From: a cyanobiont of Ornithocercus magnificus
Lineage (GTDB): Bacteria; Cyanobacteriota; Cyanobacteriia; PCC-6307; Cyanobiaceae
Length of the DNA stretch: 64,000 bases
Reading direction: 5' to 3'
Assembly: GCA_007996965.1 (NCBI GenBank)
Contig: BIMP01000001.1
Coordinates: 124,001 to 188,000 of the forward strand
Part shown: one piece after another, positions 14,047-39,570 of the stretch
Layout: each line of letters begins with the position of its first letter
Position numbering within the stretch: the stretch's first letter is position 1
Translations under genes and position numbers: made by a program
The notes under the pieces: model-generated
The model's database searches: none
What the model was told of the DNA's origin: nothing
Seen by the model: the letters and a program-made list of their open reading frames with translations, nothing else

Positions 14047-16182
14047 ATGACAATCCTCTGCAATGATACTACCATCAGCCCATTGCTGAAAGGCCGGGGA
14101 ATACCCAATTACTCAGCGATCACAGCACAGAGTGTTCAAGAGGACATCCCTAAACTGCTGCGAGAGTTAAATGATAATTTTGATAGGTTCGAGGCTAACC
14201 TCAAAAATTACTTCACTGTTGGCAAACGGCTAAGCTGGGAACTAGTCATAGATCCACTGCATTTGCTTGAAGAGCGACTCCGCTGGAGTTGGGGTACTGT
14301 GAGTCATCTGAATGCTGTGTGTAACACTCCGGAGCTACGTGCAGCTTACGCTAAGCAGCAGTCTGAGGTTGTCCGTTTCAGGAATCATATTGGGCAGAGC
14401 AAATTGCTGTACCTTGCTCTCCAGAGTCTAAGAGATCAACCAGCCAAGACTCTTGACAAGACACAGAAGCGCATTCTCGCTAAACAGCTTCTCTCTATGC
14501 GTCACCGTGGTGTTGCCCTTGACAGCAACAGCCTTGAAACTTTCAACATAGTCAGTGAACAGCTGGCTACACTTGCAACCCAGTTCAGTAATAATATCCT
14601 CGATGCAACACAGGAGTGGTCATTACTGCTGCATGAACGTGAGCTCCTTTCAGGTATTCCTTTAAGAATACTAGCGCAGCTAGCAATAGCTGCTGAGGCT
14701 GCTGGCAATAGGCGTAAAGATGGCAGTCCACCCACTACAGAGCAGGGCCCCTGGCTTCTCGGTCTTGACACGCCTAGCTATCTGCCTGTGATTACTTATG
14801 CCACTAACCGGAATCTGCGTGAGAAGCTCTATCGTGCCTACGTAAGTCGTGCAAGTCAGGGAAAATTCAATAATAGACCTCTGACTGAGGAGATTCTCAG
14901 GTTACGCATCCACCAAGCTGCTTTGCTAGGTTACAAGGATTGGGCAGAATTTAGCCTCACTAGCAAGATGGCCGGCAAGACTGACGCCGTAGAGTTACTG
15001 CTCGAAGAGCTACGCTTAGCCTCACTGCCAGTAGCAGAAGCTGAGTTACAACAGCTGTGCAACTTTGCTGCAGAATGTGGTGCACCTGAGAGTCACAATA
15101 TTCAACCTTGGGATGTGATGTATTGGGCCGAGCGGTTGCGGCGCGAACATCTGAACTTTGACCAGGAGTCGCTACGACCTTGGTTTTCTCTACCACAAGT
15201 GCTTAGTGGTTTATTCAAATTATGCAAGCGTTTATTTAACATCTACATTGAACCAGCTGATGGCAGTGCTCCAGTTTGGCATGAAGATGTGCGATTCTTC
15301 CGTGTGCTAGATCCTGATGGATTACCCCTAGCCTACTTCTACCTTGATCCCTATAGTCGCCCAGCTAGCAAGCGCGGTGGTGCCTGGATGAGCGAATGCC
15401 TAGTACCCAGCCATGGTGCTGAAGGCCATGCGGTGTTGCCTATCGCCTATCTGGTCTGTAATCAGACGCCACCTATAGGGAATATGCCCAGCTTAATGAG
15501 TTTCGAAGAGGTTGAGACTCTTTTTCATGAGTTTGGTCACGGCTTGCACCACATGCTTACTGATGTCAACTACCCCCATGCTGCTGGCATCAATTGTGTT
15601 GAGTGGGATGCAGTTGAACTACCCAGCCAGTTTATGGAGAATTGGTGCTATGAGCGAAAGACCTTGTTCAGCATGGCTCATCATTGGCAAACCGGGGAGC
15701 CGCTATCAGAACAAGACTATGAGCTTTTGTTGCAAAACCGGACATTTATGGCTGGATCTGCCACCTTGCGACAGATACATTTAGCACTCACTGACTTACG
15801 TCTACATAGCAGTTGGAAACCAGAAGATAACCACTCGCCCGAGGATCTGCGCCGCAAGATTGCTGCTGTGACTACTGTACTTGCACCAATTGATGAGGAT
15901 CAGCTTCTATGTCAATTTGCGCATATCTTTGCATCTAGTAGTTATGCTGCGGGCTACTATTCATACAAATGGGCTGAGGTACTTAGTGCAGATATCTTTG
16001 CTGCGTTTAAGGAAGCTGGTCTTGACGATGAAAAGCAGATAAGACGAGTTGGCTCCAACTTCCTGGCTAATATTCTTAGTAAGGGTGGCAGTCGAGCACC
16101 ACTAGAGCTATTTGAGGCTTTTCGTGGCCGATTACCGACAAGTGAGGCTCTGATCCATCAGTCTGGCTTAGCTTGCACTTAG
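14047..16182 (+). CDS. prlC: M3-family oligopeptidase (oligopeptidase A type)
   Basis: This zinc metallopeptidase degrades oligopeptides in the cytosol. The 711 residues match the M3 thimet/oligopeptidase A length. The zinc site HEFGH is at residues 494-498 (ETLFHEFGHGLHHML), with the downstream Glu ligand in GINCVEWDAVELPSQFMENW. The C-terminal SSSYAAGYYSYKWAEVLSAD segment is typical. It starts 7 bases after ndhD1, so cotranscription is possible though the functions are unrelated. The symbol is by family resemblance. Confidence 0.93.
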   Translation: MTILCNDTTISPLLKGRGIPNYSAITAQSVQEDIPKLLRELNDNFDRFEANLKNYFTVGKRLSWELVIDPLHLLEERLRWSWGTVSHLNAVCNTPELRAAYAKQQSEVVRFRNHIGQSKLLYLALQSLRDQPAKTLDKTQKRILAKQLLSMRHRGVALDSNSLETFNIVSEQLATLATQFSNNILDATQEWSLLLHERELLSGIPLRILAQLAIAAEAAGNRRKDGSPPTTEQGPWLLGLDTPSYLPVITYATNRNLREKLYRAYVSRASQGKFNNRPLTEEILRLRIHQAALLGYKDWAEFSLTSKMAGKTDAVELLLEELRLASLPVAEAELQQLCNFAAECGAPESHNIQPWDVMYWAERLRREHLNFDQESLRPWFSLPQVLSGLFKLCKRLFNIYIEPADGSAPVWHEDVRFFRVLDPDGLPLAYFYLDPYSRPASKRGGAWMSECLVPSHGAEGHAVLPIAYLVCNQTPPIGNMPSLMSFEEVETLFHEFGHGLHHMLTDVNYPHAAGINCVEWDAVELPSQFMENWCYERKTLFSMAHHWQTGEPLSEQDYELLLQNRTFMAGSATLRQIHLALTDLRLHSSWKPEDNHSPEDLRRKIAAVTTVLAPIDEDQLLCQFAHIFASSSYAAGYYSYKWAEVLSADIFAAFKEAGLDDEKQIRRVGSNFLANILSKGGSRAPLELFEAFRGRLPTSEALIHQSGLACT

Positions 16183-16206
16183 TAACCAGTATAGCCACAT
16201 TGTAAG

Positions 16207-39166: not shown

Positions 39167-39296
39167 CCAAATAATTTCTCCAAACTCTGGTGCAAACTGC
39201 ATTAAGATTTACCGTTCAAGTTACATAGGTGTCTGGACCACAGTTATTTAGGAAAAAACTGTTAAATTAGCCGGAGACTGGACCGTGGCACTAGAA

Positions 39297-39322
39297 GTGC
39301 AGTTAGGCAGTGCAGTTAGGCA
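39297..39322. repeat. Tandem 13-bp direct repeat GTGCAGTTAGGCA
   Basis: There are two exact adjacent copies, 39297-39309 and 39310-39322. Their core CAGTTAGGC recurs in the right arm of the nearby inverted repeat (39419-39427) and inverted in the left arm (39397-39405). Confidence 0.85.
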
Positions 39323-39374
39323 AGTCTGTGATTCAACCTGAATATGCCTTCAGCTTACATAACGCCATGAATCA

Positions 39375-39449
39375 GGATAACCCAGCAGCCAGCCAGGCCT
39401 AACTGTTTCCGTCTAAAGCAGTTAGGCCTGGCTGGCTGCTGGGTTATCC
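39375..39449. repeat. Perfect 31-bp inverted repeat (hairpin)
   Basis: The left arm 39375-39405 begins GGATAACCCAGCAGC and ends CCTAACTG; the right arm 39419-39449 is its exact reverse complement; the loop is 13 bases (39406-39418). There is no T run on the plus strand after it (CCCAAAGTTT), so it is not a classical intrinsic terminator although it lies behind the sigma-factor gene. A transcribed RNA would form an extremely stable hairpin. Confidence 0.9.
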
Positions 39450-39570
39450 CAAAGTTTGGTATAGAGTGGCAACTTATGGCGCCTAGACAAAGGTGGGCAA
39501 CCAAAAGTCAACATGCTCACACGGTACCATCTCAGATTCCTTCACCTTCTCACTCTAACTGACACCCGCC

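What the first reader, a model, noticed from the sequence alone, without database searches (positions are those of the whole stretch)
39375..39449. Perfect 31-bp inverted repeat sharing its core with nearby tandem repeats
Both 31-base arms are exact reverse complements around a 13-base loop, yet no T run follows, so it is not an ordinary terminator. The core CAGTTAGGC occurs twice more as tandem 13-mers 75-120 bases upstream. Perfect arms this long suggest recent formation (template-switch repair, a MITE-like element) or selection for an RNA hairpin or protein site between a sigma-factor gene and psiE.
Basis: partly seen in the sequence, partly recalled or inferred. Interest (0 to 1): 0.6.

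Follow-up and report, generated by a model that had tools for sequence, protein, structure and literature searches.

The report
Template-switch-type perfect DNA hairpin
A 31-base perfect mirror-image repeat between two genes of a small-genome marine cyanobacterium is real and is one of about twenty unrelated long perfect hairpins in this genome; it looks like a copying-error scar left when a replicating strand folded back on itself, not a mobile element or a standard transcription stop signal.

Summary
The inverted repeat is real: 31 perfect base pairs (34 with one G·T), loop 13 (7), -70 kcal/mol, z = -15. No T-run follows. It is single-copy in its genome and absent from 60 relatives, so it is not a mobile repeat. 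The genome is a 1.88-Mb Cyanobiaceae draft, probably a reduced dinoflagellate symbiont (inferred). Its main contig has an excess of long perfect hairpins with unrelated sequences: 18 with arms of at least 18 bp, against 0 in 0.8 Mb of two relatives (p = 6e-4). In conserved genes the history can be read: in pyrF (33-bp arms) and argS (19-bp) one arm encodes conserved residues and the other, its exact reverse complement, has overwritten ancestral sequence without an indel. That is the signature of template switching. The focal hairpin lies in a 404-bp gap where relatives carry two or three small genes and no inverted repeat, so it is lineage-specific and probably arose the same way in relaxed sequence. 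A non-canonical terminator or RNase III role is possible but untested. Exonuclease VII genes were not found, but that locus ends at a chimeric contig end, so their loss is unproven.

The parts
39375..39405 (+). left arm of the perfect 31-bp inverted repeat
39406..39418 (.). 13-nt loop (7 nt if the stem is extended to 34 positions with one G.T)
39419..39449 (+). right arm, exact reverse complement of the left arm; probably the older arm (weak inference)
39296..39322 (+). 13-bp tandem repeat AGTGCAGTTAGGC x 2.1, sharing GCAGTTAGGC with the right arm
39167..39570 (.). 404-bp gap between sigma factor and psiE in which two or three small genes kept by relatives are missing

Best explanation
The feature is a lineage-specific DNA hairpin made, or made perfect, by short-range template switching during replication. 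A nascent 3' end folded back on a short complementary seed, copied its own strand so that one arm became the exact reverse complement of the other, and then returned to its template. It was tolerated because the sequence between sigma and psiE had lost its ancestral genes. The right arm is more likely the older one, because its GCAGTTAGGC matches the tandem copies in orientation (weak inference). Shown: a unique perfect hairpin; an excess of unrelated perfect hairpins in this genome; two coding cases (a third against one relative) with a readable direction of copying; absence of the ancestral genes at this site. Inferred: that this hairpin arose by the same route and that it has no dedicated function. 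A transcript through it would carry a 34-bp duplex and would probably be cut by RNase III or act as a weak block or 3'-end stabiliser.
For: C1 census: 36 perfect hairpins with arms >=14 bp and 18 with >=18 bp (up to 33 bp) with unrelated sequences. 0.8 Mb of relatives G033 and G004 has 4 and 0, and a Markov null has at most 14 bp (binomial p 6e-4 for >=18). pyrF: the left arm encodes AAGASQLVIG, highly conserved in 29 orthologues; the right arm replaces the usual RPIT-K/Q/A/R-A-E/D-D/N-P by RPITSCEAP at the same length, and relatives such as G004, G009 and G022 already hold the short core GTGATCGG/CCGATCAC as a seed. argS: the right arm encodes conserved SRLALC; the left arm (AADRVRAS) replaces AEPEALPS-type residues without an indel. 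obgE looks the same against one relative. The arm is single-copy and without relatives. No inverted repeat in nine syntenic relatives. The mechanism is known in microbes and can create a perfect stem in one event (PMC8794818; PMC6357072).
Against: The ancestral sequence of this gap cannot be aligned, so the direction of copying at the focal site is not demonstrated. Long intergenic hairpins lie more often between convergent genes and rarely between divergent ones (arms >=14 bp and loops <=15: 7 convergent, 7 tandem, 1 divergent), which also fits a selected 3'-end role. The control is only 0.8 Mb from two genomes. The assembly holds at least one inverted chimera at a contig end.
Confidence: 0.62

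Rival explanations
1. A functional 3'-end element: a long hairpin without a U-tract that terminates or protects the sigma-factor transcript, or is cut by RNase III to separate sigma and psiE mRNAs.
For: It lies between two co-oriented genes and is very stable. Long hairpins in this genome favour convergent and tandem gaps over divergent ones (counts; roughly p 0.03 by my own chi-square). Cyanobacteria lack Rho (own knowledge).
Against: No U-tract here nor at most other long hairpins (2 of 10 intergenic with arms >=18 have >=5 T or A in the adjacent 8 nt; background 8%). Relatives with the same neighbours have no hairpin here. Many long hairpins overlap ORFs. Perfect pairing over 31 bp exceeds what termination needs.
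Confidence: 0.2
2. A whole-genome-amplification or assembly artefact: one arm is a chimeric inverted copy.
For: C1 ends in an exact 77-bp inverted copy of sequence 545 bp inside, typical of an amplification chimera in a k=77 assembly.
Against: Both flanks of the focal hairpin continue in the gene order conserved in relatives, which needs two switches. Coding hairpins keep length, frame and key residues. 18 hairpins with arms >=18 bp would all have to be consensus errors.
Confidence: 0.08
3. A binding site or iteron-like array for a protein: GCAGTTAGGC in tandem and as an inverted pair.
For: Four CAGTTAGGC copies within 130 bp, none elsewhere in the window.
Against: Six other GCAGTTAGGC sites on the assembly are single and scattered, near chance number; the conserved part should not extend to 31 perfect bp; not in relatives.
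Confidence: 0.07
4. A MITE-like or other mobile element.
For: Long inverted repeats in an intergenic gap.
Against: Single copy, no relatives in 60 genomes, phages or viral contigs; other hairpins of this genome share no sequence.
Confidence: 0.03

Closest known systems
Quasipalindrome-associated template-switch mutations (studied in E. coli with the lacZ QP5/QP6 reporters, PMC6357072)
   Same: One arm templates the other and makes the palindrome perfect, in place; readable in pyrF and argS of this genome.
   Different: Arms of 28-33 bp are longer than the 18-bp reporter quasipalindrome, and many are fixed in one natural genome; the focal site has no alignable ancestor.
Hairpins created by template switching in RNA genes and microRNA loci (PMC8794818)
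   Same: A perfect stem made in one event, with a reverse-complement copy next to its source.
   Different: Shown there by ancestral reconstruction in RNA genes; here an intergenic hairpin with no known RNA gene.
Intrinsic (U-tract) terminators
   Same: Stable hairpin downstream of a gene.
   Different: No T-run; far longer perfect stem; no counterpart in relatives.

Membership tests
Template-switch (quasipalindrome) hairpin | Arms are exact reverse complements beyond chance | tested here: met
   31 bp perfect; Markov null at most 14 bp
Template-switch (quasipalindrome) hairpin | One arm derived from the other relative to an ancestral sequence, at the focal site | tested here: inconclusive
   The gap is not alignable to relatives; met for pyrF and argS hairpins of the same genome
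Template-switch (quasipalindrome) hairpin | Absent from relatives at the same place (recent) | tested here: met
   Nine syntenic relatives without inverted repeat; no congener is held, so the age is not bounded closely
Intrinsic terminator | G+C-rich hairpin followed by a T-run | tested here: not met
   No hit at the site
Intrinsic terminator | Transcript 3' ends map to it | not testable with these tools
   No RNA-seq held
MITE or other mobile repeat | Several copies in the genome or in relatives | tested here: not met
   Single copy; none in 60 relatives
MITE or other mobile repeat | Target-site duplication | tested here: not met
   Flanks ...CATGAATCA | CAAAGTTTGG... show no direct repeat
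Curated RNA family (Rfam) | Match above the gathering score | tested here: not met
   Only two tRNAs in the window

The most novel reading that the evidence does not exclude
This lineage has a raised rate of template switching, perhaps because it lost exonuclease VII (xseA and xseB not found) on top of the SbcD absence seen in many Cyanobiaceae, so perfect hairpins are being written across a reducing symbiont genome, including inside essential genes such as pyrF and argS.
Probability: 0.2. Interest if true: 0.6.

Novelty: new member of a known kind. Interest (0 to 1): 0.38.

Why it matters
The single hairpin is ordinary as a mutational scar. The genome-wide excess matters more: it offers a natural case where the signature of template switching is dense enough to be linked to repair-gene content, and the pyrF example shows several residues next to a conserved motif changed in what looks like one step.

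Tried and rejected
Mobile element: one copy only, nothing in relatives, phages or viral contigs. Rfam family: none. Sigma-70 promoter or U-tract terminator: none at the site. Remnants of the lost genes in the 404-bp gap: chance-level matches only. Loss of SbcCD as the sole cause: SbcD is also missing in G004 and many relatives, and G004 lacks the hairpin excess. Loss of ExoVII as a proven cause: xseA and xseB are absent here and in G008 but present in most relatives, yet the gene that follows xseB in relatives lies at the very end of contig C1, next to a 77-bp inverted chimera, so the absence may be an assembly gap. RecJ is present. A fold-back of the left arm onto the tandem copies as the seed: the bases beyond the shared core do not fit. 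The organism could not be named.

Full report
Observation. The window reads GGATAACCCAGCAGCCAGCCAGGCCTAACTG-TTTCCGTCTAAAG-CAGTTAGGCCTGGCTGGCTGCTGGGTTATCC at 39375-39449. The arms are perfect over 31 bp, and over 34 positions with one G.T. The RNA fold is a single hairpin of -70.3 kcal/mol, z -15.5. It is the only strong inverted repeat of the window. CAGTTAGGC occurs four times in the window, all here. Two copies form a perfect 13-bp tandem at 39296-39322, one of only 17 tandem arrays found in the 1.58-Mb contig.

Setting. The window is bases 124001-188000 of contig C1 of a 1.88-Mb, 16-contig Cyanobiaceae genome; no congener is among the sampled relatives. C1 has 48.7% G+C. Size and position suggest OmCyn, the reduced symbiont of the dinoflagellate Ornithocercus. 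This is an inference: the genome carries no name here, and PMC11150560 gives only general facts on OmCyn. Neighbours are a sigma-70-family factor and psiE. The order hisIE - matrixin-like protease - sigma - psiE - abrB - trpA is kept in many Synechococcus and Prochlorococcus relatives. In those relatives the sigma-psiE gap is 646-1125 bp with two or three small genes; here it is 404 bp with none. The 104-aa gene is missing from the whole assembly, and the other small proteins had no match on C1. The nine relatives examined have no inverted repeat in that gap.

What it is not. The arm is single-copy in its genome, absent from 60 relatives, from phage records and, as a 22-mer, from viral contigs. 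There is no target duplication and no Rfam family. No U-tract follows.

Genome-wide pattern. C1 was read from stretches and scanned for perfect hairpins. It has 36 with arms >=14 bp, 18 with >=18 bp and six with >=28 bp, with unrelated sequences. In 0.8 Mb from two relatives (G033, G004) there are 4 with >=14 bp and none with >=18 bp; a Markov sequence gave at most 14 bp. The excess has p 6e-4 for arms >=18. Intergenic examples favour convergent and tandem gaps over divergent ones; the gene calls there are a crude longest-ORF set. U-tracts are uncommon after them (2 of 10 for arms >=18).

Direction of copying. Hairpins in conserved genes were compared with orthologues. In pyrF (C1:15708-15777, 33-bp arms, 4-nt loop) the left arm encodes AAGASQLVIG, highly conserved in 29 orthologues, while the right arm encodes RPITSCEAPAAT where others have RPIT-(K/Q/A/R)-A-(E/D)-(D/N)-P. 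Relatives already hold a short palindromic core GTGATCGG/CCGATCAC, a natural seed. In argS (C1:858122-858163) the right arm encodes conserved SRLALC and the left arm carries the novel residues. At C1:1307490 the arms enclose a variable linker and the direction is ambiguous. obgE, compared with one relative, has the same look as argS. Lengths are unchanged in pyrF, argS and obgE. This is the mark of template switching between inverted repeats, known from microbes (PMC6357072) and able to make a perfect stem in one event (PMC8794818). Endosymbionts have been reported among bacteria with many inverted repeats (PMC10434271), though I did not check that its repeat definition is comparable.

Mechanism proposed. 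At the focal site a nascent strand folded back and copied one arm from the other in sequence that had lost its genes. The GCAGTTAGGC shared by the tandem and the right arm suggests slippage and switching at one trouble spot and that the right arm is older. By my estimate the chance of such a shared 10-mer is about 1e-3, computed after the fact. This step is inference, because the gap cannot be aligned.

A possible cause. SbcD is absent here and in many Cyanobiaceae, including G004, so it does not explain the excess. Exonuclease VII, which with exonuclease I suppresses such mutations in E. coli (own knowledge; a paper on exonuclease I is in the reference list of PMC6357072), was not found: neither xseA nor xseB, while 13 of 15 sampled family members have xseA and six of seven tested have xseB. 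The gene next to xseB in relatives lies at the end of C1, and the contig ends in a 77-bp inverted copy of sequence 545 bp away. The roughly 98 bp between that copy and the gene do not encode xseB, which leans towards loss, but an assembly gap cannot be ruled out. RecJ is present.

Artefact check. The chimera at the contig end suggests that amplified DNA was sequenced. A hairpin with both flanks in conserved order needs two switches, and the coding hairpins keep frame and key residues, so an in-vitro origin of the whole set is unlikely.

Verdict. Real, lineage-specific, most likely a template-switch scar without a dedicated role; low to moderate interest as a single feature, more as a sign of a genome-wide mutational process.

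Noticed in passing
L196 (G000:C1:15708-15777 and 16148-16183): Two perfect hairpins (33- and 16-bp arms) inside pyrF; the larger one changes the residues after the conserved RPIT motif compared with the sampled orthologues.
   Followed up: yes
G000:C1:1578051-1578127 and 1578672-1578748 (in L150): The contig ends with a 77-bp perfect inverted copy of sequence 545 bp inside (resembles mutM), exactly a common assembler k-mer size: likely an amplification chimera.
   Followed up: partly
whole genome G000: xseA and xseB (exonuclease VII) not found; also absent in G008; present in most other Cyanobiaceae sampled.
   Followed up: partly
39167-39570: Two or three small genes kept between sigma and psiE in Synechococcus and Prochlorococcus (DUF1232-like, a 104-aa protein, an 82-aa secreted protein) are gone here.
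   Followed up: yes
G000:C1:8110-8176, 334685-334752, 923838-923897: Other intergenic perfect hairpins with 28-30 bp arms, no shared sequence, each in the gap 3' of a gene.
   Followed up: partly
G030:C1 (1,937,096 bp, one contig): Its size matches the 1.94-Mb chromosome reported for CregCyn, a second dinoflagellate symbiont; it would be the natural control for the hairpin census.
   Followed up: no
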